Positions 17,641 to 53,548 of a DNA stretch of 64,000 nucleotides are shown here, in pieces. Numbering within the stretch: position 1 is the stretch's first letter; each line of letters opens with the position of its first letter. Location: assembly GCA_002205965.3 (NCBI GenBank), contig NADL03000450.1:310001-374000 (forward strand). Direction: 5' to 3'. This DNA is from Kappaphycus alvarezii (lineage: Eukaryota > Rhodophyta > Florideophyceae > Gigartinales > Solieriaceae). Made by a program: the position numbers and the translations under genes. The notes beneath the pieces are model-generated. The model had not been told where the DNA came from and searched no databases. It saw only the letters and a list, made by a program, of their open reading frames with translations.

Positions 17641-19322
17641 TCTATAGAGCGTCGAAGGCTTCCGCAGCGGGACTGGCGTTGCGGACTATAGACAGGCTGA
17701 TGCACAGAGATGCGTAAAAGTAAATGCAGTGTATTTTTTTTGAGAAAATTGTCCAAATACCCGTGTTATCAATTGGTAACATTGGCCTTGTCGAATAGAC
17801 ACTGGCGATGGCATTTACATATCGCCGGGAATACCGTAGGAGCACAAAATGAGTATTGTCCACATTAAGAGCGGATATCAAAACTTGTTTTCCCTTCCTG
17901 AAATGCGCAAGATACCACCGCAACAGTATGAGATGTGCCCTATGACACGCGTACTGTACCGTAGAACTTTAGCGATACTGAACCAACTTGAACTTGTGTG
18001 ACAGTTGCACCTCGTTAATTGCATGGTATTCCTAGAAGGTGTTGTGTTTTCGGAGGTAATCTACTGTATTTTAACAATAAAAAGTAATCGGGGTTCCAGT
18101 GCAGTGGAAATGTCGATTTGAAGTGACAGTTTAATTGGGGTGGCAATGCCGCGCTTGGTAGGATATGTTGTGACAGAAATCAGGAGAACAGCCATCAAAT
18201 TGTGTTTCCAAATTAGACGCGAATTGATTCCGCTGTTTAGCTCGTGTTTGGCTACGCGAACACGTTTTCTTTCCCGCGATCTCCGGTACAGTGTGGTTGC
18301 AGAAAGGCAATCCGGACTAGGAATCTCGGGGATCCTACGCCTTTCGTTAATTAATTGTACAGTACTGTACTGAACAGCACAGACCAGTACAGTACTGTAC
18401 AGTAATGCTCGGCGAGTGGGCAGGTAGGATGCAATACGGTTACCGACGTGGGTATTTGATTACTAAAACCTCTTGTTTGTTTGATGAAAATTAAAGGGTT
18501 TCCTTTCTAATTGTGAATTCTTTACCCGGGAAATTGCAATCGATTTGGATTCTTCTGTGCCACACATATACTGTACACTGAATACTGTACAGGTACTGTA
18601 CAGTACAGTAGTCATCGTGGTTTTGAGCGCGGTTGATAGATTTGAATGCAGTTACCCGCTGGGAGGAGTGTGGAATTGAAGTGGTAAAACTGTACATCAC
18701 TCATATGTACTGTGCTGTACTGTACTGTACGATACTGTACGGTACATTACACGGGAGTGTGACAGTACTACTGTACAGTACCGCACCTACCGCACGCGCT
18801 GTGCCATGAACACAATACGTTCTGTACCGATGGACAACAATCAAGAAAAAGTGAATTACAGTAAATTGAGTAAAGTATTGCTTGAATTTTGTAATATTTT
18901 TGCGCCTTTCCGAATATTCGAACAGGACTGTCGAAGAAATTTAACTTCATCGAAAGTACAGTTGAACCCAGGCCGTCAACTTTCAGGCCATTGTACCCTT
19001 ATTTTACAGCTTTATTGTACCATTTTTGGCGGAAATATAGCGTTTCGGTTCAAATTGTTCAAGCTACTTGACTATGCGCGCGAAAAGCACGGCCGGAGCC
19101 AACATACAACCACCGCCGACGCACTTCTGCTCAACAGACCTGATTTCCTTTCTTCCAACCCCGCTCCACCTACACGTACCTCGCCTCCCCCTCCAACCAC
19201 CTACTCCCCAGCGCTTCCGCAAATTCAATCTGATCTCTGACAAACACCTAAGCTTCCTTTGTGTCCAAAGTCTGCGGAGTTACCTTCCACCAGATATCAT
19301 CATCCGCAACATTGAAAGCGAC
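17641..19322. other. Intergenic with GTAC-type palindromic repeats
   Basis: No supported gene in about 1.7 kb upstream of SCC3. Runs built from TACTGTAC/GTACAGTAC occur at 18357-18404, 18570-18610 and 18691-18783. The 3' end (about 19100-19320) is C-rich and leads to the SCC3 start, so this stretch probably contains its promoter and leader. An inverted copy of the motif at 12163 lies at 17784-17803. Confidence 0.5.
18357..18783. repeat. Three clusters of TACTGTAC/GTACAGTAC repeats
   Basis: The clusters consist of overlapping self-complementary TACTGTAC and GTACAGTAC units with small variants such as GTACGGTAC. The same motif recurs at 37511-37553 and 57998-58020, and in single copies near 12364, 33615, 54040 and 62398. 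It is always outside coding sequence here. Confidence 0.75.
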
Positions 19323-22300
19323 ATGCCCAAGGACAACGATAACAGATCGGAGGATAACGACAACCTCACCAAACCCAACGGAAACCAACCGGACAGTGAC
19401 GTCGACATCACAACCGACACACCCATTCCGGGAGCAGACACCTCTGACCAAGACCAACCCTCCGAGCCGCCCCCATTGAACAAGGAATCTCATGCCGTTC
19501 CCCCGCCAGATGAAACCCTAGATGAACCGAAACACGTCTTTGATGACGACCCCGAGATGGCTTCCTCGGAACCGGACGACAAGCCCGAAGATCCCCCCAC
19601 CCCTCCTCCCAAATCATCTGCTCCTCAGACCCCGCCAGCAGAACCTACCCAATTACCCGAAGACGACATCTTCTCCAAACTCGTCTCCCATCCTGCCAGT
19701 GTCCCGGGCCTTGTCACCGACTGGCTATCTAGCGTTCAAGTCAATGGCCCCGCTTCCGTGCAGAAGCTCTCAATCTCGTCGTCAAGATGGCTCGACCTCA
19801 AGGCTGCAATAGTCCGGGTCCAATAACCCCTGAAATGATAGTGACCAACCAACCTCGTGCATCAATTGAAGGCCTCTCCGCCATGCTTAGCGTTGAGGTC
19901 GATGGAAAAGCTCCAATTACTGCAAAGAATATGTCCGCCAAACGGGTACGGAGGGCATTTGAAGACTTTTGGATGAAAGCATCTGCCGAAAGTCCGCATG
20001 ATGTCTTGTTTGATACTGATTGCTTCGATACGTTAATTTCGTGGTTCGAAGCTTGGCGGTGGCGAGGTCAAGGTCATTGAGGACTGCTGCATCTACAGCG
20101 GCATACCGCGTAGTAGACGGGTTCTTGCAGCATGGGATACGTCTACGAAAGCAATTAGCCAGTTTGCAGAAACAATTAGCTACCGAGAAGAGACGATGTA
20201 GCGCCGCATCAAACAAAGCACGGGTAAGGGGAGGGGCAGGTCATCTCCGAGGGTAAACATCAAAGAGGTTGTCGGAGAAGGCCAAAGATTTGGCCAAGAA
20301 GGTCGATAATTTGACAGCTAACAATCGTGAGTTAAATGAGTTGTCAGATAAGGTGTTTGACCTCGTTTTCATTCTCAAGTATCGGGATGTTTCTTCGGAA
20401 ATTCGCAGCATATCGGTGACCGCTCTGGGCTCGTGGACTGTGACACATCCTGATCACTTCTTGGAAAACAGGCACATGAAGTATCTAGGCTGGCTGCTCT
20501 CGGATAAGGACCCTGCTGTCCGTCGATCGACCTTGGAGATCCTCTTGCGAATGATGAAAAAGAAAGAGTTTTACCAAGATCTACACCTGTTTATGACAAC
20601 CTTCTGCGACCGCGTCGTAGAAATGACTAGAGATAAGGACGACACAGTTGTTGTGGCCGCGATCCGTTTGCTTACATGCCTTGCAGGTCATCAGCTCGTT
20701 GGAGAGGAAAACTGTGAGAAAGTTTGCTCCATTGCTGTTGGAGAGCGACAGCTGGACATAAGACGAGCTGCCGGTGAGTTTCTATCCTGTGTGCTAAGCA
20801 ACGACGAGCGAAATGGATTGTCAAAGAGAGGGAAAAGAAAGCCTACATCTCGAAGTTCGCGCGGAACGAAACCAAAATCTTCCTCCTCGAAAAATGGTCG
20901 TAACCCAAATGAGTGGAGATTACGCCTATTGAGCGCTCCACTCACATACTCAAGGAGCTTCTGTCCTTAATTGGACGAAATGAAAAGGCGGAAAAGGCAC
21001 AGACCTCGCAGTTGACGCCATGTGGGATTCAATGCCAGCACTTCGATGTTGGGAAGCCTTCTCTACCTTGTTGAGAGATGATGGCAGAGGCGGACGAAGT
21101 AGAGGTGCTGCTGCAGGCGTCGGTAACTCCTCTTCTTTTCACCTAGACGAACCGCTGAGTGAACACGAGAGGGCGGTTGTAGCGGAAATACTTCTCGCAT
21201 CTGTCCGTGAGGCCAGTGGCCACGGTGGCGCCGAACGCAAAGTCATCGTCGCTCGTGGTGAGCGCCAAATTCGAGCCCCCGGGACTCGGGTTTTCGCGTA
21301 TGTTTCTGCCCATACTTCCCCGTATTCTCGTTCAGTTTCAAGCAGAGGTGAGAGCACTTACTGCTCTAGTGCAGCTCCCAATGCATTTTCATACAGATTG
21401 CATTGAACAGGAAGGTCACGATGACAACTTCCACGAGATCCTACTGAAAATATTGGATATAATGTCGCGTCACACTGGGTCTCCAAAGCTGTTTAATGCA
21501 TGCGCCAAAACATATCGGGTGTTACTATCAGATGACAATCCGCTCCGATCGGCTGCACTCAAATCAATGCAGCATGGATATGCCACAGCAGCAAAGGAAT
21601 TTGCGACTCTTGTGCGGGCGGACCTTTCAAAAGCAGAACCGATGACAGTCGCCGCTGCAGTCTTGAGAGTTCGATCCTTGAGCGAGCTTGTTCAGCCCTC
21701 TTCCTCAGTTTACGACTCGATTATAAGTATTTTGCAACATCAAATCGAGAAAGGTCCGCTCTCCACACTGAGTGAAGAAGTGACTACTGATGCCGCGAGA
21801 ACTGGAAGTGCCTTGATCATGTGGACACTATCGAAGGTCCGATCCCGCTTAACGGCCTCACTTGACGCTGAAGGACCATGTCAGGATGTTGCGAGAGACG
21901 AAATAGAAGCAGCAAGAAGCAAAGGAGCTGCCATAGTAGACCTTTTAGGGCAGTTATCCTCGTCCGTCTCCGTTTCCCTCCTGACCAGGCTGGTATGCCT
22001 TCAAGGTCTTCTGACAACAGTGGCTCTCTGTCGCGGTGTGGAAAGGTTTGCCGGAAAGTGTCTGAACCTATCAACTGTTGCTACTGACTCCCAAGAGGCC
22101 CCAGAAGAGGCCGCTCTGGATTTGCTTCGAGTCCACTCAAAAACAGAAAGCCTAACGTCAATTGTGAGATCATGCGTTATTTCAGTAGTTGAGCACAACC
22201 GAGGGCTGCAAGACCATACTTTGTACGTTGAATCTCGACGCGGGGTAGAAGGAAACGAGCAATCATCCCTGAAATAGCCGTCAAAGATTTTTTTGCTTCC

Positions 22301-23901
22301 GTAATTCAAGCCTCATACCAGTCCGTGTTATCAGCGAAAATCTCACATCTTCCTGTTCTTGGGCTGCTGCTGAAACGTAAAAAGGCATCTTTACGAGAAG
22401 TCATGACGGGGATTGGACAACATTCGAGCTATGCAAGAAATACTGTGAGGACCCCCCAATGAGGGAATCGCAGCGGATACGATACGAAGTCCTTGCAATT
22501 CGAGAAACGGCACAGATGCAGAACTCTAGCCAACGTGATCAGCTCGAGAGGGAGCTTGGTGACATCATTTTATCTGTTCGGCCAAATGGCCTTCCAAGAC
22601 GAAGAGCTTGCAAGCAATATTGGTTCACCTCATCAACATGGTGCATGAGCCCATAGCAGCAGCCATTGACTTAGACACATCGATTAAGATGTTGGTTACA
22701 GTTGGTCTTCGTTTGTGCCAGATCTCTCCTGATGACGCAAAGGCCTTTCTGGAAAGTTGGAACCAGTGCATGCATCCTTGCAGTGAAAATCCCCGCCAGA
22801 TTCACCAGTTCTTCGTCCCTAGAGTTATTTTCAGATTGTTTGAAAGCAGTTGTCGCTGGTAACCTCGGGGAACTATCGAACTTGTCGAGACGAATCCAAC
22901 AGGGAAAAGCATGGTGTATCGAATTCCTCAAGAAAACGAAGAGGTCCTCTCCCGATGCTTGTGCGTATCGTACATCATCATCATCTCAACGAAATCCTGG
23001 CACTTTACGTCGATCAGGCCGACATCAGAAACGAGTAGATTATTCCCAGCCATCTATCGTTGGAGAAGATAATGATTGTGATGAGGAAAACTGCGTAGAA
23101 TCTTCAGATCCAAATGACGTGATGATCCCGTTGTGGAATCTGATGAAAAGATCACCGTCGCAAAAGATGTTGCCCACGTGTAATGGAATGTGCGAATTCT
23201 CCAAGAGCTCCGACTAAGCCAACAAATTCTCAGCCAGGCAGCCCCGACTTGGACCCAAAAAAGAAATCACTCGCGAATCTGTAACGATATGCTTATCCAG
23301 GGGGGGTTGCTGCCAAAATACAGGGGATCCCTCCGAAGCGATTGAGCAGAACGCTGTGAGCAACAACCGCCACAAGCAGAAAGCTCTGTTGCTGATACTC
23401 AAGATGGTGCTGATGAACAGCTTCAGTAGACCATGACGCAGCTGATGGGACCACGGCCGAGCCTGGAAAGGCGACCTCTAGAACTGCGGGGAAGAGAGGG
23501 AGCAGCCGTAGCGCAGATTCGAGAACGCGAAGGATTCAATAAGTAGAAAATTTTCGGATATATCTCGGAACATCAAAAAAGTTAACACAGGAAATCGCCG
23601 ATCGAGAGGATCCGCCGTGTAAGTCAGGGTAGCGCTCAGGAGGGTAATGGTGCTGCAAGTCGCGAGGGAAACACGTCTGATCCGCACCGTCACCGAGACT
23701 GGAAGCCCGCTCAAGAATAGCACATCCGTCAAGACACGGAGGGCGAGAGTCTCGCCGCAGGATGTCACAAGTCCTATCGCGGAGACAAGGAAAAGGAACG
23801 CGAAGGTGGCGAGCGAAGGTAAGGAAAACGTCAAAGATGGCCACGGCAAGCGCAGTGAGGTACCAGTAGTGAGAAGGCGCAAGCGCCAGAAAAGATGGTG
23901 A
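19323..23901 (+). CDS. SCC3: Cohesin subunit SCC3/STAG, frame-broken
   Basis: SCC3/STAG binds the SCC1 kleisin in the cohesin ring that holds sister chromatids together. An acidic, proline-rich N-terminus (from the ATG at 19323) is followed by EALNLVVKMARPQGCNS and RRAFEDFWMKASAES, the start of the STAG domain. Then come SRSLRTAASTAAYRVVDGF and the signature VFILKYRDVSSEIRSIS, FLENRHMKYLGWLLSDKD, near 20360-20520. HEAT-type helices continue to about 22,430. The last part is poorly conserved and ends in a basic tail (VVRRRKRQKRW) at 23901. Frame changes occur near 19765, 20062, 20805, 20950, 21230 and 22250, most needing one added base. A TAA at 20254 is also in frame. It converges with POL5, leaving 171 bases. 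Confidence 0.8.
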
Positions 23902-24072
23902 TTGTTTGTCTGAGGCTAGTGTTTTACTGCAAGCATTTGCGGGTTTCATCCGGTAGCACACGCCTACGCTATGCCTACTTCAACAGTCGACACTTAGTAT
24001 TTACTTTTTCGCTTTTGGTACTTAAATCATCTACTTTCTCCTCTCGGCAACGTTTCTTGTTAACCATACCGT

Positions 24073-27000
24073 TTATATCCTGAGGATTTTGGACAGCCAC
24101 CGCTTTGGGCTCTTTAGCATTGCAGCGAATCGATTTCGTTCCTGTTTGCGAAATGCAAACTTGTCCAGCTTATTCGATAGAGCTGAGGCAACATCGTAAC
24201 CTTCAGTGATGTAGCCCCCAGCAAGCCCATTGGCGATCACCCTTACCATGTCACCAAACGCCGAGCTGGTCCATTTCTTCGTTACGTCAGTTCCAGCGCA
24301 CTCTCTCTCCACAAGATTTTTGACTTGTTTCCAAAAATCGTTCGCCGCTTCTGGACAGATTTTGGTTGAGTTGTTGCACTGTGTTGATATCATCAACGTA
24401 AGCTCCATTAGAAGGGAGCGCTTTGTTTTCGTGTATGCTCCGACTTGAGCGCACTATCAATTGCCTGTATGAACCTTAGAAGATCTCCGGGCTGCATGTA
24501 TGAACGAACGGAAAGCATCGGGAGTCCAAAAAGGGGTATCTTCTCGTAGCATATTATCCAATGCTTCTTGTAGACTGGGAAGTATCTCGAGTAGGGGTTC
24601 CTAGAGAGTTCTTCTACAACGGACAAAAAGCTTCGAGCCGAACGGGAAATTGTGCGCATAACTGCCATCTCTCCCTTATGATCCCCTTCTGCGTTCTCAG
24701 TAACTCAAAGAACCTGTCAACTATCTCCATGTGGTCTGGACATCCGAAATCTTCCCAACAAAGGCCGAATGAGGAAGTATCAGTTGCTTTGAAACAATAC
24801 TGCTCACCTCTTTCAAGAATCGCAAGTTCTTCGATTCCCCGCCCAAAACAAACTCATACAAACGAACATGCAAGTCCATAAAAATAAGGGGCGATCTCGG
24901 GTCATCATCATCCCATTTTTCCAGGGCTACTCTAAGTATGCGTGAGGCGGTCTCAATGACGTTAGAACACGCGATACTTTGATAAACCGAAAAGCTGCCC
25001 TTTCCTTCCGCGTCTTGGTTATCTTTTTCTCCTCCCTCAGTAGGCTCAAATGGGCACCAAGAACCTTATCAAACTTTGCCAAAACACTTGGATCCTCCTC
25101 GTCAATATCCATACCAACGTCACTCTCGCTATCATCATCGGACCCTCCTGTTCAGCGCTGCCGGGTTTCTCTACTAACTTGATCGCTTCCTGCCCACCAA
25201 CCATGCTCTTAGGAGGTTTCTCCTCAATGTTCTCGCCTCCGTCCTCACTTACTTCTCGTCGTCGCTGCCTTCATCTGGTCCTTCATCGCTTTCGTCTTCC
25301 TCAACCAAATCGGCTCCCTTATCCCCAGTCGCCCCCCAGCCTCCATTTCCCAGTCGCCCCACCAGCCTCCATTTCATCTCGTAATCCTCCTTTCCTCTAT
25401 ATCCTCCCCCTCTTGCAAATAAGAATCTATCGAATCAAACAATACCGCAATAACCTTATCATCTATGAAACGCCCAAGTTCTTGAACTGCTATCACTGCG
25501 ATCTGTCGAAAACTTGATGAATCCCATCCACATATCTCTGCAATTACATGCGCGATGTGTCTGCTGGTTCGATCGGCTCCTTGGCTCTCTCGCCATTGTC
25601 CGGCTCCGCTCCTTTGTCTTGTGTTTTTCCTGTTGACAGAGCGATTCATGCGAGATTCTACTTTTTGCATTAAGCTGACGTAGTTTGACATCAGTTCCTG
25701 CCTCTTCTCTGCACTCTCGGCTGTTACGTCTCTAGGTTTAAACATGTGTATGTACAGAAACTGGGCAATCGTTTTCAAAGCTCCAGATATTGGTGACACT
25801 TCCCCTCTGGAATCTGCAACAGTCAGCTGATCCAATACCTCTAGGGCAACGCTTTGGAGGTCCCTAGGTTCTTTCCTTACCGTAGGAAAAGGTATGCCAG
25901 GAGTGGAAACCCTTGGTACACAAATCAGCTGTCTGCAGCGGATATTTTCCTAATCAAACTAATACAGAACGTCGACTTAGCCTGGAAGGGTTCCCGTTCC
26001 TTTGCTCGGTTAAAAAGTCAACCAGCTGTCGAAACCCTGCACCCAGTACCTCAGGATTCAGGGCAGGCTCTGGCTTTGGAAGCAACCCTAAATAAAACCT
26101 GTCCTCATCGCCACATTCCTTTAGGTTCAGGTGGTCAAAAGAAACAGGAATTTTCGCCTTCTTGACAGAGTGGGATTCATGTTGTTCGAAGAGAGAGTAT
26201 AAAACGACAACCCTGATTACATCCTTCATCATGTACGGATGTTCTCTAGCTATAATGAAAAGCAGGCGAACCGCGTTCGGTCTCTGATATACGTTCTGTG
26301 GCTTCTCAAACTTTCGAGAGTCCGCTCCATGAAGCGGCCTCGCATACCACGAAACAGTGCTTGCAAAGAGATAGGCAATATCTTTGTAGGACATAATGTT
26401 GAGCGACCTTACTAGCAAGTCATTCGGAAAAAGCTTGAAGAGGATACCACCTCGTAAAGCCCACAGAAGGGCTTCGCTCATGAGTCGGGATCGCTCTTCT
26501 TCCTTCTTTGATTCTCCGCACAGATGAGTGAGAATACTCTCTCCCAGGCGCCTCGCAGATTGATTTAATTGTCCCATCACATGTTCTTTTGCCCGCGTTG
26601 CCCGAAGTTGCACTGAGCCATTCCTCCTCTTCTGATTCGCATGCCTGCTTAAGAAAGACGAGCCGTGCTGGAGAGGGAGTTGCCAAAAATGCCACGAAAG
26701 TGTTCATCATCATGGATGTGATCCAAGACAACATTGATTAGTTCCAGAGCCAGGAGCTTCTTCTCAGGCTTCGTGAGCCTCCAGAAGACTTTGAAGACGG
26801 CTTTGGGCCAGAATTTGGCAATGCCACCCCAGTGTCGCACTCCGTTTTCTGTAAGAGCATATTCGACAGACAAGCGCCATCCAAGTGGAACAATGTATTT
26901 GCATGGTTCCTTTTTGTTATCCTCAATGTGAAACATGTCCTCCGCTACTGAAGTAAATCCCCCTTCAAAAGTGTCCATGAGGGCTTTAAGGACACCGTCA

Positions 27001-27718
27001 TCTAATGAGGGTAGAGGGTAACAAATGCCTTGTTGGAAATAAAGCCCTTCTCCTGCAGCAAAAGTGCCAGCTGTAATCCGTCCTCCTTCTCCAAACGAGA
27101 TTCACACCACGCCCACATAGGTTTCATCACAGCGTAATTGTCTCGAATATCACAAGCGCCAAGACGCGCTCCAAGACTCGAATAGCAGCGCATCCAAGTC
27201 TCCATTTCGCGGCATCAGCATCCACCACTGAACGAAGCATTCCAACCATTTCTCGACCGTACTCGGAGAAAATTTAGCACCATGACAACCTGCAACAACC
27301 GCTGCAATAGACGCCAGTGTCCCTAAAGCACGCTCCCGCAGTGCGCCAACATATTCTGTATCAAATGAGCCCTCCGGGCCGTACACGTCCTTGACAGCTT
27401 TGAAACATTCGTCAGATGCCTTCTTGCCCCCTGGGCAACAATTTGACGAGTGAGTGCAGTCAAAATGAGGGAATAATTGAGACGAGCGGCTCCAGATGAA
27501 ACGGAGACTCCCGTGACAAGTCGGCGCATGACATACTTTGCAGGCGCGGTAGTGGTGGTGCACCCGTCGGACAGCGCAGCCGCGATTAAAACGGTTGACA
27601 ATTCGGCAGTGGATTTGAATGGCTGCGGTCGACGGCATTTGTCCAGAGCGTTGAGGGCGGCGCGGGAAATAGGAAGTTTAGAAGTTGGAGCTGGTGTCGA
27701 CGGGGCTGGAGGGGCCAT
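24073..27718 (-). CDS. POL5/MYBBP1A-like nucleolar protein, frame-broken
   Basis: Proteins of the POL5/Myb-binding protein 1A family are HEAT-repeat nucleolar proteins needed for rRNA synthesis and ribosome assembly; despite the yeast name they are not working DNA polymerases. From the start at 27718 the protein reads YVMRRLVTGVSVSSGAARL, the family's N-terminal repeat. Helical segments follow (ALRERALGTLASIAAVV, WRLTKPEKKLLALELIN, LLWALRGGILFKLFPND). After an acidic stretch (DDDSESDVGMDIDEED, 25140-25100) comes VLAKFDKVLGAHLSLLREEK, typical of the family's C-terminal half. The extent of about 1,215 codons fits known lengths. At 27428 one G is missing from a G run. At least seven frame changes occur. 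Confidence 0.7.
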
Positions 27719-29359
27719 GTTGTGTGAAAATGGATGGTCAGTGGCGGTTCTAGACGGGAATCGCGGTGCAGCCTGACGAGTGTTGTCAATCTGGTTTGGT
27801 GCAAGGTTTCAGCGCTGGAACGGCGATGGTTGCAGGTGGACGAGCCGGATTTGATTGATTGAATTCAACGGCAGAAGGCGTCTTGTCTTCGTGAAGTAGG
27901 GAACGGACGCTGATAGCAATACAGGCCAGGCTGTGATGAGCTGTTCTGGTAGTATGGAGGTGTTGTGGCTGATCAGTGGCAGGTAGCCCAAGTGTGCCAG
28001 CAGGAACATGTCGAGCTTTACGCCGTCGCCTTCAGAAAGGGCACGTGGTCTGTTTCATTGGGTAGTATTTTTTCAATTTTAAAATTATAAAATGCTGTGA
28101 CAAGTTGTCGCTCCCTATTGGATGCTTTACCGAATGGTTACTGTGAGCAGTATGACGTCACCATGCCCCTTTCCAACCTTTTCCAGTCCCCACCTCGTAT
28201 CACCACAGCCCTAAGCCTTGCAATGTATACCGTACATCCTGTGTGGTCAATGCCCACTGTCATGCCCATCTCGGTTTCAGCAAATTGCAGCCATCGCATC
28301 ACTACCAAAACTGTGTGCCGAACATTATTCACAATATAGGCCAGGTAGTGTTTGTGTGATGGACCTCCGCTGCCTCTGTTTCTGATCACGCAGGAAGGCG
28401 TAGGAGCCCGCGCTCTCACAAAGCATTGTACATACCCGTTTGCCTTCTATGTCCAGATCTTTTTTTGTGTGTGTGCGCTGACAGCAATTCCCTGAAAAAT
28501 CCTGTTCGAATCCTCTGTGCAAGCATCGTGTGTGTGCCCCTCGTCAGTATAGTCTGAGCTTGCTGACAAATCCTGCCTTACTATGATCGTCAGGTAGATA
28601 AAAATACGAAAATGCTTTACACCTTTGAATATGGGAATAGCGGATAAGCAATCTCTTTAGTAAAACTCCATTTCTAGGGTCCCTCATCACGACTAAACTA
28701 CCTGGAAACCCTTACATGCATTCCAAAAAAACACACTGTTCTAGTTCCCCCAAATGCTTGCAGTGATTGCTGACTCCGTGCCTCCGTTTCTTCTCTTTTA
28801 CCTCTTCTTTCATTATTTCAACCAGCATGATTCCCTTTTTATTTCAAACATTTAGCACTCAGTGCCGTGAGAATGGCCTGTCTTTTGCTTATCGTGCTCA
28901 CTCAATGGAGTACCAGACAATGCATTTCTTCCAAGAAAAAGGAAATGCGTTATATCCATGCTTCTTGTAATCGCTTCTTGAGGTCATCCGACACAAAGTT
29001 GCATTTTTGTTGCATAAAACAAGTTTTGCTTTGGCTCGTCATCAATAAAAAAAACCAGCTTGTCCGGTATTACGCTTTCGTTTTACTGCAACTACTGAAA
29101 CTTCCTCAAGTGCATGGAAGAAAGAGGTTACGCTCTGGTTTTCGCATACCCCTTCCACACACACATCATTCCGGAAACTCTAAACACCCTCGTTTCTCCC
29201 TTCCCTGCCTCTCATCCCCCAGTCCCATCGGGCAGTTACTGTGCAATATACTCCGTGAATCTCCGAAAGATCGCCTTGTAACCCAAAGTCTGGTCAATAC
29301 CCAAAGTACTGTTTGATATTCCTTCCGCTTTCTAAGGTTCATCTCTCATTTGATCTCAA
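27719..29359. other. Intergenic, no gene recognised
   Basis: About 1.6 kb between the divergently placed POL5 and GT61 genes, presumably holding both promoters. Open frames here (for example 28138-28419 minus) show no family features. I see no repeat or RNA gene. Confidence 0.35.
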
Positions 29360-31191
29360 ATGAGACCAATAAAAGCAAGACAACTCTCTGTCCCATCGTC
29401 TCATCACATGAAGAAAAGTCGAAGATGCTCCTTGGGTGCTTCTCATGTTGACATATCTCTACGAGTTATGTCAATAATCGTCATTGCCTTTGCTTTTTGT
29501 GAGTTTTCGGGAATCTCTCAATCTTTTCTGGATGCCTACAACAATCGCTTTATTCCATACGCAGAGTTTTCATCGGAAGGAGCCCTGCCTGGAGCTGAAC
29601 AACTCATCTAGTCTCGCAAACAAACCTCCCTCTCTCAGCAAATCCATACATACATCTAATGTTACTTCTCATTCTCGAAAGAAAACATTATTGGAAAACC
29701 TCTACATCGGATTCGATCCGTCAACACGATGGGTGATTTATGAAAAAAAAGAACTCCGCTTGCCAAGAAAAGGCCCAACCTAGTCCCAGGCTTTCAATTA
29801 GAGATGCACTGGACGAAAGAAAACTTTGATGATAAGGTTTGTCGTATTCATAATGCCTGCATGCGACCTGATGGAACACTCCTTGTGCATGAATGGATGA
29901 AGTCTCAAGAATCCCATCTTCGTTCGTGTGGTGTTCAAAATCTGCGGTACATGAAATCTGAATCGCCTTTAATCGAGACGATGTCAACAGCCACTTTGAT
30001 CTTTTTGGGGTGCGACCAATTCGATACCATATTCCTCATTTCCTACGGATATTTTACCAGTGATTTATGCCTCAGAACTCCTCTTCGCCCACAGTTTACA
30101 GCACCACTAAAATCAAGTCGGTTTGTGAGGCTCCTGGCAAAAAAAGATGCCAAAAGTCGTCAATCAGTGAGAAACTAACCGTCCTTGTACGCCGAACAAA
30201 GGATTGCTATGATGGAGATCTCATCATGGGTACCCAGCTTAGCTTTCCGCTATGCTGCAGGAAATCCATCGATGCATTTCGTCGAACTCGATGTTTAACG
30301 ATACGCAGGGGCTTGTATGCTTCCGATCCGTGTAGCTTTCATCCTAGCAGATATGTTCGTCACGGGTCGGAGTGGTTTGGATATAATAATCCTATGTTTT
30401 CATCACATGGGGTACAGAGAGGCAGTGCTAGGAGGACAGATCGAATGCTGGAACCAAACAAGCGAAAGGGTGTGAAAGAGGGTGACAATTCTGAACAGAG
30501 TCGGATGGGCGAAGCGCGGTGATTTTATTCTGGGCAGAGACGTGGTAAACGTGGAACAAGTAGTTGATCAGGTTGAGCAAGTAAGTCGCGCCAAGCAGAA
30601 TGGGAACCTCAACCTTCGCGTGAACATTGAATATTTTGAGAATATGTCGTTTCCAGAACAAGTTGAAGTCATGCAAAAGCAGACGTGCTAATGGGAGTGC
30701 ACGGGGCAGGGCTTGCAAACATGGTATTTGCAAGACAAGATGTCCCAATCCTAGAAGTACTGCCTTTCGGATACTATGCTGGTCCGTTCAACACACTAGC
30801 CAATGCTCTCTATTTGGAATACTCAAATACAATTGCAGAACCGACTCGGAAAACTTTGCGGATTGTTTGAGGACCTGGCGGACAAACTGCATGACCCTGC
30901 TGTCATGAAAAAGGGATGAAAATGTGGGAAGAGGCCGTTCGCAAAAGAGAAGAAGGAAACTGGTATGCGCTCCAAACGCACAGGTTTACTGGTAAAGACT
31001 TGGTTCCAGTTAAGCTGTGTGCGAGGTCGCAACGGCTGAGGGTGGACGCGGTTCAGGTTGGGAGGAAACTTGTCGAAATGGCCCAAAGACTATGCGGCCA
31101 AGGGAAGAGCGCGCCAAGTAAAATCGCCGTCAAACAATCACGTTTTTTTTTCTATTTGAATCGTCCGCTCGAGTCTGATACCCTCACTTGA
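29360..31191 (+). CDS. GT61-family glycosyltransferase, frame-broken
   Basis: GT61 enzymes transfer sugars such as xylose or GlcNAc in the secretory pathway. The N-terminus has a signal anchor (VMSIIVIAFAFCEFSGIS, about residues 36-53), giving a type II Golgi topology. The lumenal part contains NACMRPDGTLLVHEWMKS (about 29850), then SHFDLFG and YHIPHFL with DILPVIYASELLFAH near 29990-30090 in shifted frames. Next is FHPSRYVRHGSEWFGYNNP, and the family hallmark GVHGAGLANMVFARQDVP is at 30694-30750. A basic C-terminus ends at 31191. Frame changes occur at least five times with similarity continuing across each. The acceptor is unknown; matrix or N-linked glycans are the likely choices in an alga. 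Confidence 0.8.
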
Positions 31192-31758
31192 GCACAACCT
31201 TGTAGCACTATAGGTTTTGATCTCTAAGCATGAAATTGACAGGGTGAAAGCGCATAGGCTAGCTTGGCGGCTTCCACAAAGTTCATCAGTGCAGTATGAT
31301 AACGCATCTTGAGGAGCAGTCTCGCTGGTCGTTATGCACACATTCAACAAAGATTCCAACCGGACAAGCTGCGTAGTTCCTTGGAGCCTTTAAGGCATGA
31401 AATGATTTCCGTTAAAGACGTTGTCTGGTGTCGCTACAATATGTCGAAGATACTGTAAAGTTGAGTAGTCACGTCCAATACAAGGGAGAGAGGTACTTTT
31501 CAACCTGTACATATACAGTAACAGAAAACAGTGGTACTTTGTGGAGTTGATGACGAGAGGCAAACAGCAATATGCAAGGGTGGACCCAACTCAGGTCGAA
31601 CTATTGCGTGAGCAGCAAGCCTATCGATGGTAGCAGCTTCCATGTTTCCACATCGAAACCCTTCCTGACGCCTTCCTTGAGTGAGAGCATGTTTATCCAC
31701 CATACCATTGTAATTAAGCAACATATGTAGCTCTACCGATGACCCTTCAAATCTTATC
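31192..31758. other. Intergenic, probable promoter region
   Basis: About 570 bases between the GT61 stop and the membrane-protein start. A minus-strand frame covers 31500-32105 but overlaps a better-supported plus-strand gene and is treated as a shadow. Nothing else is recognised. Confidence 0.35.
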
Positions 31759-33579
31759 ATGTCCCTCACTTGCCTCCTATCCGAGCATGAGCCTACCTTC
31801 TTTTCCACCGGACCCTCCAAGAGCTCAGCAGTCAATCCAACGATTTCGTAGCCTACATAGCTCCAGGGTCCATAGCTCTCGCGCATCGGGACCTGTGCCC
31901 AAGCACACTTCCATGCGCCTTTAATACCTCTGCCTTTCTCTCCTTTGCTGACTTTCACACCATCAAACGCCGACGCCGTTGCCTCCTTCGCAACCTGTTT
32001 CTTACCTTCCAACTCCCTATTATACTTCTCCATGTCGACCAAACTCCTCAGAACATCCGCGACACGCTCGGATCCCTCGCGTCGTTTTTTTCGATCACAC
32101 TGCAAGCCCTCGGGAACACCTACGTAACGTCGGATACTCCCTCGTTGACCTTTCCCACTATCTCCATCCCTGTCTTTTTCTTCAATGCATATGCGGAGCC
32201 GTCTCGCACTAGCGCGAGTTCCGAGCCAGCCAAGCGAGCACTTTCAGCCCTGTTAGTTTCCTATCAGTCCGCGAATGCATCCCCGCCACCGGTCACTGCC
32301 AGAGCGCTCATCCAGTCTCTTGAGGCCTCCGTTCGTGCCGGGTACATTGATGTTGTCAGCCCTATCACCTTCCAATCCTCAGATTCTACCTCGCACGTTT
32401 GGGATGGCAGTAGGCTTCGCAGAGCTTGCCCTCCCTTAATCGGCGCAAGAGGAAACTACCTATCTACCGCTATTGTCAGCAAACAGAGGACCAATGAGAG
32501 TTTACCGTACGGGTTTGTGATGCAAGATTGTGTCATCCGTATGCTCCGCGGCGCAGTGGAGGAGACGGGACTTTTGGCTGTGAAAAGCCATACGGGGATC
32601 AACAAAGGGTTTGAAGCCTGTGCATGGACTGTGTTTGAAGCGTTGCGGAAGAAGTCAGTCGACGGGACTGAAAAGAATGTGAAGGCGGGTGTGATTGAGG
32701 ATGACCGAACGTATATGTCCACGGAGACGTTTTACTTTGTCGACACCCGACCTACAGTAGTGCGTGGGAAACTAGCGCTGGTACCGTTTTGTGTGACTCC
32801 GGAACTGCAGCTGATTTACATGCTGGTTGTGTCAATGGTGGTATGGCCGATTGGGCTTGGAGGAACAATTGTGTTAATCGTTAGCGCTTTTCTTTGTGCT
32901 AGAGCATGTAGCGTGAAACGGGGGGATAAGTTGAGAATATGGGGCACGAGGTGGAGTGGGGGTGAGGTGCTTGGGCATCTGCGAAGGGTTTTGACAAGTG
33001 TGGGAGTGCTTGTGCTTCCAGTCTTGGGCATGTTGCATATAGTTGACCATCTGTGGACTAGAGGGCAAGTTGGAGTAGTAGGGGCGTTGTTGACAATCTA
33101 CATGCCGGGGTTTTTTAAGTGGGATTCGATTCGGTTGGGGAGGAGAGGGGTGCGAATGGCGAGGGATTCGGTGGAGAAGACGAGAAAGGTGGTGGGGGAT
33201 TTTTCTATCGGTGTTGATTCGGGAGAGGGCGAAAACGAATGAGACGGAGTACTTGGACGGAGAGATGGTAATGGGGAGCGGGGAATATGTTCATGCAGCG
33301 CATGTGCCGAGTGATTTGTTGGAAAGGTGGGGCGAGGATTACTGGTATCATTTGCAAAAGGGCGAAATGATGATTATGGACAAAGGGAGAAGGAGCGAAA
33401 TAGGGAGAGAGGATACGACGATGAGGAGACTGACGGATAGCCGGGATAAGGTTGTAGTTCGTTACCTGCAGCGGATTGATGCAGAGAGGGGAAAATGCTC
33501 CGGGGGTTGCTGTGGTTGCCTCGTGCGATACGATTTTCGCTGGGGTGGGGACGAGGGATGGGATTTTGCGCTGGGGTGA
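31759..33579 (+). CDS. Unknown multi-pass membrane protein
   Basis: From 31791 to 33242 one plus-strand frame is open for 483 codons, the longest stop-free stretch in the window. It has no ATG early on. An ATG at 31759 in the neighbouring frame (MSLTCLLSEHEPTF) joins it if one T is missing from the TTTT run at 31801-31804. The protein has a basic/hydrophobic segment (RNLFLTFQLPIILLHV), a soluble region of about 200 residues, then spans near 32805-32910 (LQLIYMLVVSMVVWPIG, VLIVSAFLCARA), 33000-33045 and 33070-33115. Near 33230 the frame shifts again and continues DGEMVMGSGEYVHAAHVP to a stop at 33579, with a cysteine cluster (CSGGCCGC). About 600 residues in all. I recognise no family. Confidence 0.6.
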
Positions 33580-33760
33580 CAGAGCGGTCGATTGACTAAA
33601 GTACAGTAAAAAACAGTACAGTACGTCAAGTTGGGTGACGGCAAATTCGCAACAATTCCTTCGTCGCATGGATGAAAGCCGTATGATTTACTCCACCATC
33701 CAAGCCATTACCACCAATCGTCCATCCCTCCATCCCTCCATCCTCCCGACAACCGTCCCA

Positions 33761-35204
33761 ATGTCCCCACTTGCCGCCTTTATCTCCCCTCTTCCCTTTC
33801 GCCCCTTCTCCCCTTACACCCGCTGCATCCCGAAAATGTCAACTGCCAACAATCAACCACCATCTGCCGACGACAAAACCCCTACACCTCCCTATCCGAT
33901 ACCACCCCGCAATCACACTCCTCCCTACGTCTAACGGGCAAGAACCTCGAGGTCGGCGACGTCAAAATGGATACAAAACTTATCACCGGCGGCGTTCATC
34001 GCGACGAGTGGACCACAGACCCTCTGAACCGCTCCGTCGTCAATCCCCCGGTGTATCACACTTCCACAGTCGTCTTTCCCAACGTCGCGTCTTTACGTTT
34101 CGCCTCCTCCGACTGGCCTTTCACTGGCATGTGGTACGGTCGTCATGGCAATCCTACCACCTTTGCCATGGAGGAGGCGTTTGCAGCGCTTGAGGGTGCC
34201 GATAATGCATGCATTACCGCATCAGGTGTCGCTGCTGTAAATGCTTCCATATTGGCATTTGTGAAATCCGGAGATCATGTTTTAATCACCGATGCCGTTT
34301 ATGACCCTACTCGCTCCTTCTGCGATGTCTTTTGAAGCGCTTTGGTGTCCAAACAACCTACTATTCACCAACCATCACCGTCCACCAACTGGACCGCTTA
34401 ATCCAGGACAACACAAAGGTCATCTTGATGGAGTCCCCGGCCAGTCTTACTTTTGAAATCATGGATGTACCGGCTCTTGCAAAGTGCGCTCGAGCAAGGG
34501 AGTCAAGTCTTGATAGACAACACATGGGGGCCGACGTTATTTGCCCCGTTCGAGCATGGATGTGATGTGTCTATTAATGCCGCTACCAAATACTTGGGGG
34601 GTCACTCGGATCTTATGATGGGTGTCATCGGCGCTCGAGATCCTGACACTTACCGTGCAGTAAAGAAAAGCGTTGTTGAGTTGGGATGCCCCCCCGGGAG
34701 TGACGATGCTACTTGGCGCTGCGCGGGGTTCGTACCTTAGGGGTAAGGCTCAGACAGCATGGAGAGTGGGCTCAAGATTGGCAAATGGTTAGAGGCAAGG
34801 GATGAGGTTATTCGTGTGATGCACCCTGGCCTTGAAAGCCATCCACAGCACACATGTTCAAGATGCAGTTCAAGGGATGCGCGGGATTGTTTGGCTTTCA
34901 ATTAAGGGAAGGGTTTCCGCAAGGTGCAGTCGATGCTATGTTGGACGGTATGCGACTGCACTCGATGGGTTTTTCATGGGGCGGATACGAGAGCTTACTC
35001 ATGCCGAGTAAGATCAACAACTACCGAACGGTAGATACTTGGAAGTATGGCGATGGATACGGCCAAACCTTTAGAATCAGTGTTGGCCTTGAGGATGTGG
35101 ACGATTTGATCAAGGACCTGGAGGATGGGTTTGAGCGGCTTAACAGTTATCAAATCAGCAAGGATGCTTTAGTTGAAAAAGATAAACAAAATGCTGCAGT
35201 TTGA
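33761..35204 (+). CDS. metC: Cystathionine beta-lyase, frame-broken
   Basis: This PLP enzyme cleaves cystathionine to homocysteine in methionine synthesis. The first 60 or so residues from the ATG at 33761 (MSPLAAFISPLPFRPFSPYT) are hydroxylated and basic with few acids, as in plastid transit peptides. The body starts TKLITGGVHRDEWTTDPLNR and PPVYHTSTVVFP. Active-site features include YGRHGNPTT, an SGVAAVNASI loop, DNTWGPTLFAPF, and the PLP lysine in NAATKYLGGHSDLMMG (about 34575-34620). The C-terminus has GFSWGGYESLLMP and FRISVGLEDVDDLI. The F-S-W-G-G-Y-E-S form favours beta-lyase of the bacterial MetC type over gamma-synthase. Frame changes at 33890, 34332 (TTTT run), 34500, 34710, 34755 and 34853 mostly need added bases. 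Confidence 0.8.
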
Positions 35205-35667
35205 GCTGCCGGAGCAGCAAGTAGCACCCGCGCGACAACAGCCGCATCCGACAAAGTTTTCAGATTATCGGTAAATCCAGGAAACAAAACGTTATCCGTC
35301 TTCATTCTGCGCGTCAGCACTACGCTGCACTGTTACTGGTCACGGAGCATTTGGACCATGTCGATATGTCCAACAACTTGACCTCTACACACGAGACCAT
35401 AGTTGCGATCGCAGCGTAGGACTCCAACGGAGGCACACATACTTTGGAGATCAGAGCCAGGCAATGTAAACAATGTCGTTTCTCACAAAACCTCACGTTT
35501 CCCCGCAGGACAATTTCTGCGTCCCGTTGCACCCTGAGGTCTGTGTTTGGCAATCCATTCCTAATTTCAGCGAGGGCTTTTAATCATCGCCCTCAAGGAT
35601 TCAGAGAGCAGCAGTTCTGCACTTCTCTCACGTACCATCGGAGAAGCATAGCTAGCAATCCATGCGC
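35205..35667. other. Gap between convergent genes
   Basis: The cystathionine beta-lyase and ceramidase-type genes end toward each other here. A minus-strand frame of 77 codons (35320-35553) has five cysteines but no recognisable features. No terminator or repeat is evident. Confidence 0.35.
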
Positions 35668-37214
35668 TCACGTCTTTGCCATAAACATCACTTGCTCCAA
35701 AAGTCTCTCAGCCTCTTGAATAATACGTCCTTCCACTCCGGCCTTCCACACGGAAGGCAATCCGTAGTAGAGAGCAGCGCGTTCAAACTTTCCGCGAAAG
35801 TTACTAGCCAGCAGTTCATCAGTGGGGATATATCCCATGACGTCGTCCGTATAGCCTACAACCCAGTCCGCGCCTCTGCTGCGCAAGGAATGACAATACG
35901 AGACTGTCGGTTCGCCACCCAAAAAGGCAAAGCGCACCCCGCGATATTCGCAGCAGTAATCGGATAGGAGTAGTTGGCAGGTGTTTTTCCATCGGCCTCG
36001 GTTTGTTTCATGAGTGTCTCTGCGGCTCGCTGACCCAAACTGTGAGGATTTCGCGTCAATTGTCGCAATTCGCGCCGACTAAGGCGCGAATGGAACAGCA
36101 GCGGTATGTCATTGTGCATAAAGGCCAAAGTGTCATATGCCATGATTGGTAATTTTGAAGGCGTCACCAATGACAGAATCTGCGATTATCTCTGCTAGGT
36201 CGTTGGAATGCTTTTGCAACAGGTCTGTAGTGCCTCGTGGGTATATGTTCTGATCACCGCCACATCCGGTGAGAAATAACCATGTAGAACCTTGCATCTT
36301 GTCCTCCAAAATGGCGCTTGTGAGGCCCGGATAGTCTCCAGAGTACCGATACTCATTGGTGAGCACAGTAGCATGAGCGGAATAACCATACATGCCTGCT
36401 AGGACTTCACCACGCTCCGCAGTGAACCACAAGACAGGCACATCGTGATCGGTGTCACCCCTCCTCATACCATCAAATTCCTGCTCAAGAACATCCAAAC
36501 GGTTTACTGCAAGCGGTGCACTAACCCGTGCAAAATGTGGCGTGACGGACACAAGCCTGTCCTGCGCAAGGATATCAGAAACAAGATGAAGTAGATTTCG
36601 CAGTAAAATATCTGCGTAGCGGTGAATTTTTGCCCACTCCTCAGCATCGTCAGGAACGAGCGGTGCAAGATTGTGACCGACTACAGGGCCAGAATGTGTA
36701 TGAGTGGTGACGAGACGAACTTGGGCACGGGAGAGGCCGAATTGGGTTTGGAGCGCCTTGTAAATGGAGAGAGAGGTCGCGATGCAATCCGATAAGATCA
36801 AGGGAGATTATGATGAGAGGGGAGGAGGGGTGGAATTTTGAACGCAAGGATATCGCACGAGCGTACAATGGAACGGAAGGGTCAAGAGGGGCGACGTGAT
36901 CCACGGTGCGGTTGCGGGATTCGAAACCACTGAGCCAGACGCGTTCAGTAGGGTGATGTCGAGTTTGGAGAGACCGAGAAGGAAGGGAAATGTTGGGGGA
37001 GGCGGGGGCGGGGAGGGGGAGCAGAGACACGGGTTGTGATGAGGATGAGAAGAAAGAGAATTAGGGTGGTGATGATGGAAATTAGAACTGCGGGGTTTTG
37101 TTGAAGAGTGCGGGATAGCTTGCGAAAAAGGCGATGCAGATGGAGGTAGGAGAAAGAGTGGGACGGAAGTGAGGTGGAGGGGCGAGGGAACAAGGGACGT
37201 CGAGAGATAGGCAT
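35668..37214 (-). CDS. Neutral/alkaline ceramidase-type hydrolase, membrane-anchored
   Basis: Neutral ceramidases hydrolyse the amide bond of ceramide outside the cytosol using a zinc ion. The start at 37214 gives a basic N-terminus and one strong hydrophobic span (AVLISIITTLILFLLILITT, about residues 45-64), a signal anchor. After a proline-rich linker the domain begins LGLSKLDIT. Family motifs follow: VTTHTHSGPVVGHN with metal-binding histidines (about 36700), APLAVNRLDVLEQEFDG, DVPVLWFTAERGEVLAGMYG, SAHATVLTNEYRYSGDYPG, CGGDQNIYP and WVVGYTDDVMGYIPTDELL, ending at a stop at 35668. The layout resembles the shorter bacterial-type members. At about 515 codons it lacks the long C-terminal domain of animal enzymes. 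Frame changes occur near 36970, 36790, 36150 and 35930. Confidence 0.75.
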
Positions 37215-38582
37215 TGCGAGGATTAGGGTCTGGATGAGAAAGGCGGTGCTGTCGTGGATTGGAGTGATGGGAAGGGAGGTTCAAGATAGGTCATTGGAAA
37301 ATTGGGCACCAAGAGGTGGATCATGGAGTAACTCGTAGGTCTTTGTTGGACAGGATACCATGGGCAGGAAGAGTCCCAGTCGCGGGCCAGAAAACGGTTT
37401 ATCGAATGGCGGTAGTTTTGCGCGCTCTCACTTTTCCACCAAGAAAATGTGAAATGCCTGGATTTTGGAAATTGAATCAACAGCCATCTGCTCACGATTG
37501 CGTCGATGATACAGTACGGTACAGTACTGTACGGTACAGTACAGCACGGTACTGCTGTGCTTAATGCCATACCGTGGCATACCCCCTCTATGCTATCCCG
37601 CCGTACGTTTGTCCGTCTGTACATACTATCTTTAGATACCACTACATGTCGACATGTAACCTTAGCTGGAATTTTATTGTTTTTGTATCGAGTACTCTCG
37701 ATACATTCACGTCACACAACTCACAGTGGAACCACTACATGAATGCCGGAACGCAGTGGATAGTACTCAGTACTACTTGATCTGGAATCACCGAATTGTG
37801 ACACGCAGTCAGATCAAGAGGATCGCCCGCTCAGATCGTATAACTGTGGCAAAGAATCTACAACTTTACTTGCATATAAGCTAGTCGGAGGCGCAGTCAA
37901 ACCTCTGGTGAGAGTAGCGAGGGATTTTGCCGCACCCAGCACAGCCACTCAGCAGAGAAAATTTGCGTTCTGCTATTTTGGCAGCTGCTACCGCCACTAA
38001 AGCTATTCTTTGCAATATTGCCGCTATTCCCGCGACACTGCTAACCCTGCACAATTTGCTATCAATCTTGGCCATAACCAACTTATTTTCCGTCAGGGGG
38101 AAAACTTATGTTTTCATGATTGAAAATAAGTTCTTCCAGAGTTTTCAAGTACCCAAGTTTCTAAACGCAACATCCCGACTTTTATACATCCCCACATCAC
38201 ACAGGTTCTATATTTCACATAGAAAATCATGCCATACAGTAGTCCGAGAAAAAAGAATATGAAGCCAGATCCCTAATACAGTGAACGCTAGCAAAAATAT
38301 CAATAGAAAGATATCCCTATTATACCAATGAGCACTCAAATGCGCATCAAATAAAATCAAAATTGGAGAAGAGCTTCTAATGAACATTTAACTGTGCATT
38401 AGAGGCTGAAAAAGTATGTTTTCGGGGTCTCTCTCTCATTAACCTTCATATAATTCAGAACTTACAGTACCAAGGTCTTGTTACCAGAGATCTCAGCTGT
38501 CAAAAGCAACTTGAATTTTTCAATATAGCCCTAACGTTCCAAGAATACAGTCCCTGCTATCTAAGAGCAACCTACTCCATCA
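37215..38582. other. Intergenic with a GTAC repeat cluster
   Basis: Upstream of the ceramidase-type gene. A cluster of GTACAGTAC/GTACGGTAC units lies at 37511-37553. From about 38100 the sequence becomes AT-rich and resembles the transposon-rich stretch that follows. No gene is supported. Confidence 0.45.
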
Positions 38583-47695: not shown

Positions 47696-47721
47696 AATCT
47701 CCCCCTAAGCAAGAATTAAAA

Positions 47722-48526
47722 TTGTTCGCTGCCCCTCACTCGAAAGCATGGGCGATTGTACCTAGAATGGGACTACACCTCCGTCCTTTTCTCCCAACGT
47801 CAGTTGCGTCGTCTTCATTACCACTTCTTTCACCCTCCCGACGAAAAATTTATAACCTTATCGCTAGGACACACCCCGATAAGGCAACCCCTGAAACAAA
47901 GCAACTCCTCCAACAAATCACAGATTCATGTCAGACTTGTCAACATTTTTCCCCTCGACCCAATCATTCAAAGTTTCGTCTCCAGACAAAATAGTCTTCA
48001 ATTCCAAGATATCTCTGGACCTCATGTTTCTCCATATCAAAAACGTCCCAAACCCGTCCTCCGTGTCGTAGACCTCAGTACAAAAATTTCGGCAGTCCTC
48101 TTCTTACAAGGTGAATCGAATGAATATATTTGGTACACTTTTCTCCAAATTTGGGCTACCATTTACAATGGTTACCCTGACACCATACGCAATGATCATG
48201 GCTCCGTCTTCACTTCGGCTCGCTTCCAGGACATTGCTTCAATGTCGAGTATCAGACTTGATCTCTCAAATGTTGAAAGCCATAATTCTCTTGGAGCTGT
48301 CGAAAAATACCGCAACCTGTTGCGCAGGATCTACCTCAAAGTCTCCCTAGAATACCCCCAACTAGACCCTCATATCATTCTTTCCCTTTCAGTCAAAGCC
48401 ATGAATGATACCATGAATGCGGATGGGGCAGAAATGGAAACTATTAACTCCCGGCTGCGTATTCAAAAGGCACTTCTATCCAACATTCCTTTTTCCTCTA
48501 CTTTGAACTTGGAAACAGGTCAATAG
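47722..48526 (+). pseudogene. copia integrase with pre-integrase zinc region
   Basis: The pre-integrase part contains LIARTHPDKATPETKQLLQQ and SCQTCQHFSPRP, the H-H-C-C zinc-binding region (47855-47960). The catalytic core in 47756-48526 reads VLRVVDLSTKISAVLFLQGE (first aspartate), IRNDHGSVFTS (second aspartate) and NVESHNSLGAVEKYRNLLRR (glutamate), then LSVKAMNDTMNADG. Only a few frame changes occur, and the core is nearly intact. Confidence 0.85.
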
Positions 48527-48529
48527 GTA

Positions 48530-49460
48530 TTAGTTTATCGTAAGAAGGAGCATATAAAATGGCTTGGACCGTTCAAAATCTTACGCATTGAAGGAAAACA
48601 AGCCTTCACCGACAAGGATGGAACTGAAACTCAATTTTCAGTTAACAACCTTCGTCCGTACATAAGAAACTTGAACCATCTACTATCCGCGGATGACAAA
48701 GTCGCCGTCATTCTACACTCCATGTTAACAACCTTCAATCATAAACCACCGAAGGGATTACCAGTCCACTTCTCAGAAACGCTCCATCCTAAATGTTCTT
48801 TAGATATCTCCCGTAATTTTTGGGCGCTATACGTACAGAATACAAGGCCTCCTGGACCGTAAGGTCTGAACTACTGTTTCAAAGTCGCTTCCCCAAAGAA
48901 AGCTAACATTTTGAACGGTAAATTCGAACTTACCATAAAAATATCGATGCAGACGCACCCTTCTACAAAGGTCGATTCGTCGCGCAAGGGCACCGAGACA
49001 AGGATAAAAACATATTGGTCCATAACTCCCGAAATTAAGACAATATTGAACCAGAGTCATATCTTCATTGGCGGCAATTCTGAAATTACGCATCTGGAGC
49101 AACGATGTCAGCCAGGCTTACCTTCAGCCTTCAGAAGTTCTCTGCCGAAATGTCTACTTAAGACCCCTCCTCAGTTGGGACTCGCAAATGATAAGATTCT
49201 CAAGCTATTCAAGCCCCTTTGCGTTCTACCGGGTGCTGGAGATTACTGGAATCGCACAATGGCTGCACACCTTAAAAAAGACCTCGAACTTTCTCCGTCA
49301 TTGAGTGACATGGATCTGTTCTCCTCAAGTAATTCTAATGGTCTACAAGGCCTGATAGGTGTCTATTTTGATGATTCAATCCTCTGTGGCAACAGGCCGT
49401 TTCTTCGTCTTTCAGGACAAATGATTGAAAACTTTAATTCTAGGGAATCTATGGAATAGT
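48530..49460 (+). pseudogene. copia reverse transcriptase, broken
   Basis: APFYKGRFVAQGHRDKDKNI near 48955 matches the copia approach motif. WSNDVSQAYLQPSEVLCRN (49096-49155) carries the first catalytic aspartate with the typical A-Y-L-Q. GAGDYWNRTMAAHLKKDLEL follows, and GVYFDDSILCG (49359-49391) is the Y-x-D-D box as Y-F-D-D. Frame changes occur near 48910, 49070 and 49190. Confidence 0.8.
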
Positions 49461-51891: not shown

Positions 51892-52004
51892 GTCGCCTCG
51901 TCGGAGGACAAGACACGGCAGTTCCCGTCACTGAACACGTTCTGCTTGTCCAAGCTCGCCCCATATTTCCTTGGAAGTCTCTGCACCAGACCGCGCAATC
52001 CGCA

Positions 52005-53548
52005 ATGAACTTCTTTAACCGGAATAGTGCCCCAACTCCCGACTCCCCAACCTCCCCTCCTCCCTCTGAGCCACCACTTCATCCCCTCCCGTATCAATGG
52101 ATACACCCACCGCACCCTCCACAAACCCCTCCAGTGCTCCTCCTTCTAGCGATCCGCCCAAAAAGTTTCGTTTCCCCCGATTCAGAAACCCCTTGCTGGC
52201 AGAAACAACCAATCCTCTGACAATTCCCATGAAAACTCTGTCCCCAACACCGATATAAAGACCCCTACTCCGGAGCAACTCGCACGCCGTGCCGCACGTC
52301 GCGCTGAACGTCAACGTCTCCATGACGAATGGGTTGAAAAGAACCATGAGCGTCGAAAACAAGCCGTCCTCCAGAATCGTCTCTACGAACCACTTCCCGA
52401 ACCACCTCATATCAATTCCGATTCCGAACACGACGATAATGAAGAGGAAGAACCTGAAGCCGTCGCAATGCCGCCTCCGACGCAACTGCCACATTTTGAT
52501 GGTCCACAGCCAGTAGGGATCAGTAACGCAGAAGAACGCCCGCAGCATGCGAGTACCGAGAGTGGAGTAGATCCAGGACCGTATCTGCCTCCACGACCGG
52601 AAGTTTATGACGGAAATCAGGAGGGTGCACATATGGCTACACCTGCTGGTGCTCACATGGCTACACCTGCTGCCGCACACATGGCTATACCTGCTGGAGC
52701 TCAGGTTACGGCAGGTCAAGGTGGGGCTGGGATGCCTATGCCGACAGGTCCGCCTAGGGACCTGATGGCTGAGGCGAGAATGGCTGATATGTTTGGCAGG
52801 GAGGCGTTTACTGGCGTGAAGGGTGTGGCGGGCAGGAGAAGGCGCCATGGCTGGGTATTCAGGAATGAGCAGGGAGGGGAGATGGGACAGATGTATGGCA
52901 GAGGGGACGGTGTGGGTCGCGGAGCGCCGCAGGGACCCGCACAAGTTGGATGGGGGGATGCATACGGCAGTGTTCCTGGTCATCACATGCAGCGGAATCC
53001 GATGATGGGTCGTAACAATCCCGCTTCGGATATTGATTACACATTATCCGAGAAGATTCGAAGGGGGAGAGAACTAGGCCGATTGGCTGTGTCACAAGAG
53101 GAGCAGGGGAATTTGGGAGCAGCAGAGTCTGGATACATGAAGGCGTTGGAACTATTAATCCCCGCGACAAGGAGTTGGAAGTGGGAAATGAGCTGAGTAA
53201 AACGCAAGGATGACGATGAAGATGAAGGTACAAAGGGAGGCAGCCGCGATGTTGGATCGCGTTGAGGAACTCAAAGTGTTTTTGAAGGCCAATGGGCCGG
53301 CAGTGCCGAACGAAATACCGGTGGTACCAGGAGCGGCACCGTCACAGCCCAGAGGGAGAGGCAATCAGGGTGGGGGCTGGAGTGACGGAGGTGGCCGTAC
53401 CACTGGTGGAGGGATACCGGAGGACCTGCCGCCGGACTTGGCAAAATTGTCGATCGGCGGGCCACCAAAAGTGAGTGAGCAAGGTGCAAAGAAAGCACAC
53501 ACAACCTGCCACCGCCGCCACCGCCGCCGCCATTCTTTGATGGGATGA
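52005..53548 (+). CDS. MIT-domain protein, copy A, frame-broken
   Basis: MIT domains are three-helix modules that bind ESCRT-III tails in membrane remodelling. The protein starts MNFFNRNSAPTPDSP, has a basic patch (PPKKFRFPRFRNP), a charged helix (LARRAARRAERQRLHDEWVE) and an acidic run (SDSEHDDNEEEEPE). A repeat of GAHMATPA-type units follows at 52625-52700. The MIT domain is RGRELGRLAVSQEEQGNLGA through ALELLI (53065-53155), then REAAAMLDRVEELKVFLKAN (53240-53300) in the next frame. A glycine-rich linker, the helix EDLPPDLAKLSI and a polyproline run end the recognisable part. Unlike copy B, I find no RING finger downstream. Divergent from the small gene at 51891. Confidence 0.65.

What the first reader, a model, noticed from the sequence alone, without database searches (positions are those of the whole stretch)
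19323..37214. All conserved genes share the same defect: reading frame lost by missing single bases
SCC3, POL5, GT61, the membrane protein, cystathionine beta-lyase and the ceramidase-type gene all change frame every few hundred bases while family similarity continues. At 20062, 20805, 22250, 27428, 31803, 34332, 34710, 34853 and 56427 I checked the junction, and each needs exactly one added base; 34755 needs two. Three (27428 G run, 31803 T run, 34332 T run) are in homopolymers. A few changes elsewhere (21230 in SCC3 and some POL5 junctions) go the other way or need two bases. Independent loss of so many essential genes in one locus is unlikely; loss of bases in the assembled sequence, as in unpolished long-read consensus, explains it best. 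Automated gene calls here would be fragments.
Basis: partly seen in the sequence, partly recalled or inferred. Interest (0 to 1): 0.75.

Follow-up and report, generated by a model that had tools for sequence, protein, structure and literature searches.

The report
Missing bases in a rough assembly
Housekeeping genes in this stretch of red-algal DNA look broken because single letters are missing about every 200 bases, which is almost certainly an error of the assembled sequence and not biology, so gene calls here would be fragments.

Summary
The window looks like nuclear DNA of a red alga. Frameshift-aware alignment to one intact relative per gene shows SCC3, POL5 and cystathionine beta-lyase (CBL) continuing through 45 frame changes in 9698 nt, about 1 per 216: 43 are missing bases (40 single, 3 double), 2 extra. 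Simulated intact genes gave no shift in 24 runs; spiked controls show no strong bias towards losses.

In-frame stops are 0-2; CBL matches its relative at 399 of 429 residues past the leader; spacing is near random; slippery motifs are not enriched; no intron-sized gap occurs. This argues against neutral pseudogenes, programmed frameshifting and introns. Bases lost in the consensus fit best.

Losses are uneven: densest at 22230-26000, while one 483-codon ORF (31791-33239, no known homologue) is uninterrupted. GT61, the ceramidase, 31803 and 56427 could not be tested well. SCC3 shows excess lineage-specific changes that I cannot fully explain.

Verdict: assembly artefact, low interest. No reads were available, so this is inferred.

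The parts
19323..23898 (+). SCC3/STAG cohesin subunit gene, read in changing frames: 18 frame shifts (16 with one base missing, 1 with two missing, 1 with one extra) against P0002
   Evidence: Pfam SCD and HEAT_SCC3-SA; tblastn; frameshift-aware alignment covering residues 1-1535 of P0002
24038..27718 (-). POL5 / DNA polymerase phi-like gene, 21 frame shifts (20 with one base missing, 1 with two extra, the latter in the poorly aligned acidic repeat part) against P0013
   Evidence: Pfam DNA_pol_phi weak, 15.6 bits, below cut-off; relative P0013 with PF04931; alignment of residues 1-1229 of 1242
22230..26000 (.). stretch with the densest shifts: 29 in 3632 coding nt against 16 in 6066 elsewhere
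   Evidence: p 0.0003, 0.002 and 0.053 at three penalties, region chosen after seeing the data
30673..30741 (+). 23-residue match to the end of the GT61 glycosyltransferase domain; gene not testable for shifts
   Evidence: E 8.6e-5, 23.2 bits, cut-off 27
31791..33239 (+).
33761..35201 (+). cystathionine beta-lyase (metC-type PLP enzyme) gene, 6 frame shifts against P0014 (4 with one base missing, 2 with two missing)
   Evidence: Pfam Cys_Met_Meta_PP in two frames; relatives; alignment
36136..36807 (-). piece of a neutral/alkaline ceramidase-like gene; neighbouring frames at 35671-36185 and 36653-37060 look like its continuation by eye only
   Evidence: Pfam Ceramidase_alk E 4.3e-4, 19.5 bits, cut-off 32.1; no PDB support; translations

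Best explanation
The alga's genes are most likely intact. The assembled sequence lacks single bases at near-random positions, about one per 216 nt in the coding sequence tested, because it is a poorly polished consensus of error-prone reads. Shown here: many losses, very few gains, conserved protein on both sides of the shifts. Inferred: that the losses arose in sequencing or assembly, and that the data are long reads.
For: 43 of 45 shifts are losses, 40 of one base net; same pattern in three unrelated neighbouring genes; 0-2 in-frame stops; CBL 399 of 429 residues identical to a relative past the leader (sum of segments), and at 302 outgroup-invariant sites 5 window-only against 3 relative-only changes; segment lengths near exponential, CV 0.98; no slippery motif or intron-sized gap; relatives of the same length class are intact in the protein database; controls clean. 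In a published long-read draft most indel errors were false deletions (PMC12007338, passages).
Against: No reads were seen. The losses are not enriched in homopolymers, whereas the passages of PMC12007338 tie deletion errors to homopolymers and report under 0.05% errors, ten times rarer than here. Losses are uneven. SCC3 has twice as many window-only as relative-only changes, 103 against 53 of 919 sites, and 44 against 21 of 447 with four outgroups, also far from shifts: substitution errors, hidden paired shifts or relaxed evolution are possible. A natural 8:1 deletion bias would not be rejected by 43:2 (p 0.11; 3:1 is, p 0.0003).
Confidence: 0.92

Rival explanations
1. True pseudogenes: the whole locus decays neutrally, for example a dead duplicate, a degenerate haplotype or the genome of a reduced (parasitic) alga.
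For: Deletions outnumber insertions in neutral DNA too; an 8:1 bias is not excluded. SCC3 carries excess window-only changes. Uneven density of losses.
Against: Too few stops: with 5, 8 or 10 substitutions per indel 9.2, 14.7 or 18.4 stops are expected for 45 indels against at most 2 seen; with 3 per indel 5.5, which is not rejected (P 0.087); the true ratio is unknown. CBL protein is conserved. Three neighbouring unrelated genes share the same defect.
Confidence: 0.05
2. The DNA is as given and the cell copes: missing bases are restored by insertional RNA editing, or ribosomes change frame at each site.
For: One-directional, mostly single-base losses at scattered positions in conserved genes are what insertional editing of Physarum mitochondria looks like (recalled, no call).
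Against: Spacing near random and down to 14 nt; slippery heptamers near 2 of 43 losses, 1.7 expected; no enriched context beyond an uncorrected best 5-mer, 6 of 43. I know of no nuclear case (recalled); a paper search for insertional RNA editing with Physarum, frameshift and nuclear found 0 papers.
Confidence: 0.01
3. Introns produce the frame changes.
For: Eukaryotic genes can change frame at introns.
Against: Bases are missing, not extra. The longest window stretch without a counterpart is 6 nt in SCC3, 24 in POL5 and 0 in CBL.
Confidence: 0.01

Closest known systems
Gene-fragmenting false deletions in long-read draft assemblies (e.g. PMC12007338; passages seen)
   Same: Mostly short false deletions that shift frames and make intact genes look like pseudogenes.
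   Different: Here about 0.46% per base in the coding sequence tested, against under 0.05% there, and without homopolymer enrichment.
Neutral pseudogenes
   Same: Frames lost while similarity continues.
   Different: Hardly any nonsense codons, CBL protein still conserved, all three genes tested affected alike.
Insertional RNA editing of Physarum mitochondria (recalled)
   Same: Genes lack single bases at many places.
   Different: Here apparently nuclear genes of a red alga, sparser, spacing near random; no RNA evidence was available.

Membership tests
Consensus deletion error (assembly artefact) | Indels far outnumber nonsense changes in conserved genes | tested here: met
   45 shifts, 0-2 in-frame stops depending on the shift penalty up to 30; 6 at the strictest, where shifts are suppressed
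Consensus deletion error (assembly artefact) | Unrelated genes affected alike | tested here: met
   SCC3 18, POL5 21, CBL 6 shifts; three genes tested only
Consensus deletion error (assembly artefact) | Losses concentrated in homopolymers (common long-read type) | tested here: not met
   Runs of 3, 4, 5 or more at 21, 9, 3 of 43 losses against 19.4, 6.9, 2.1 expected
Consensus deletion error (assembly artefact) | Accurate reads contradict the assembly | not testable with these tools
   No reads held
Neutral pseudogene | Nonsense and missense changes accumulate with indels | tested here: not met
   Few stops; CBL 5 against 3 unique changes; SCC3 103 against 53 speaks partly the other way
Programmed -1 ribosomal frameshifting | Slippery heptamer at the shift | tested here: not met
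   2 of 43, 1.7 expected
Insertional RNA editing | Transcripts carry bases absent from the DNA | not testable with these tools
   No RNA reads of this organism

The most novel reading that the evidence does not exclude
The DNA really lacks these bases and the alga restores them at the RNA or ribosome level, which would be a nuclear insertional-editing or frameshifting system acting on several housekeeping genes.
Probability: 0.01. Interest if true: 0.95.

Novelty: not a real feature. Interest (0 to 1): 0.1.

Why it matters
It is a data-quality warning. Gene predictions, pseudogene counts and gene-loss claims based on this assembly would be wrong, and searches by open reading frame would miss or fragment its proteins. 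As biology it is ordinary.

Tried and rejected
Introns: rejected because bases are missing and no intron-sized gap exists. Slippery motifs: no excess. A shared 5-mer at the shifts: the top one is seen at 6 of 43 losses (1.1 expected), the best of many without correction, so not taken as a motif. Homopolymer cause: no enrichment. Pseudogenes: see rivals.

RVT_1 (58.5-62.5 kb), rve and RVT_2 (46-50.5 kb) matches each lie in one frame, but rve and RVT_2 are below the cut-offs and the stretches are short, so shifts could not be counted. The tandem duplication at about 52.0-55.7 kb has 42 gaps in 1265 aligned columns, 34 of 1 nt, 4 of 2 and 4 of 3. That is more than the coding rate predicts, so real divergence is mixed in and it proves nothing. 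The 96% identical inverted repeat (188 nt) has one gap, too short to use.

Rfam at gathering scores and a bacterial-code tRNA scan found nothing. A PDB search of the ceramidase piece gave only a chance-level match, and one of the 483-codon ORF none. The organism behind P0014 (GFKZ) was not found in the papers.

Full report
What the window is. Pfam finds the stromalin and SCC3 HEAT domains, a weak DNA_pol_phi match and Cys_Met_Meta_PP on separate open pieces. The SCC3 search listed 7 relatives: the best is unnamed (78% identity), the one with a name is Chondrus crispus (39%) (only the 7992 candidates sharing most words were scored). The CBL search gave 877 proteins, 120 listed; among the best are Gracilaria, Agarophyton, Gracilariopsis and Chondrus, and at the top an unnamed EukProt transcript protein, P0014, identical at 422 of 477 aligned residues. 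The window is therefore most likely nuclear DNA of a red alga, probably a florideophyte (placement of those genera recalled). The POL5 search gave one relative, P0013. P0002 and P0013 both report a longest contig of 9201 bases, so the two genes are probably neighbours and intact in that relative; this is inferred from equal lengths only.

Noticed in passing
52004-53386 and 54280-55548: Tandem duplication of about 2.2 kb spacing, 75-77% identical between copies, with a 348-codon open frame in copy 1 (52150-53196); a MIT-domain match is weak and below cut-off.
   Followed up: partly
58604-58790 and 59267-59454: Inverted repeat of 188 nt, 96% identical, inside a G+C-rich stretch (59-60% at 58-62 kb).
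   Followed up: no
59942-61366: 474-codon ORF with a reverse transcriptase domain (RVT_1, E 6.8e-11) in the G+C-rich stretch; a retroelement that appears less interrupted than the genes.
   Followed up: partly
47720-49459: Weak rve integrase and RVT_2 matches in one frame, suggesting a Copia-type retroelement.
   Followed up: partly
18706-18745 and 37510-37552: Short tandem arrays of TGTAC and TACAG-type units, one on each side of the gene cluster.
   Followed up: no
19323-23898 and 24038-27718: SCC3 and POL5 are convergent neighbours; the best relatives of both report a longest contig of 9201 bases, hinting at conserved order.
   Followed up: no
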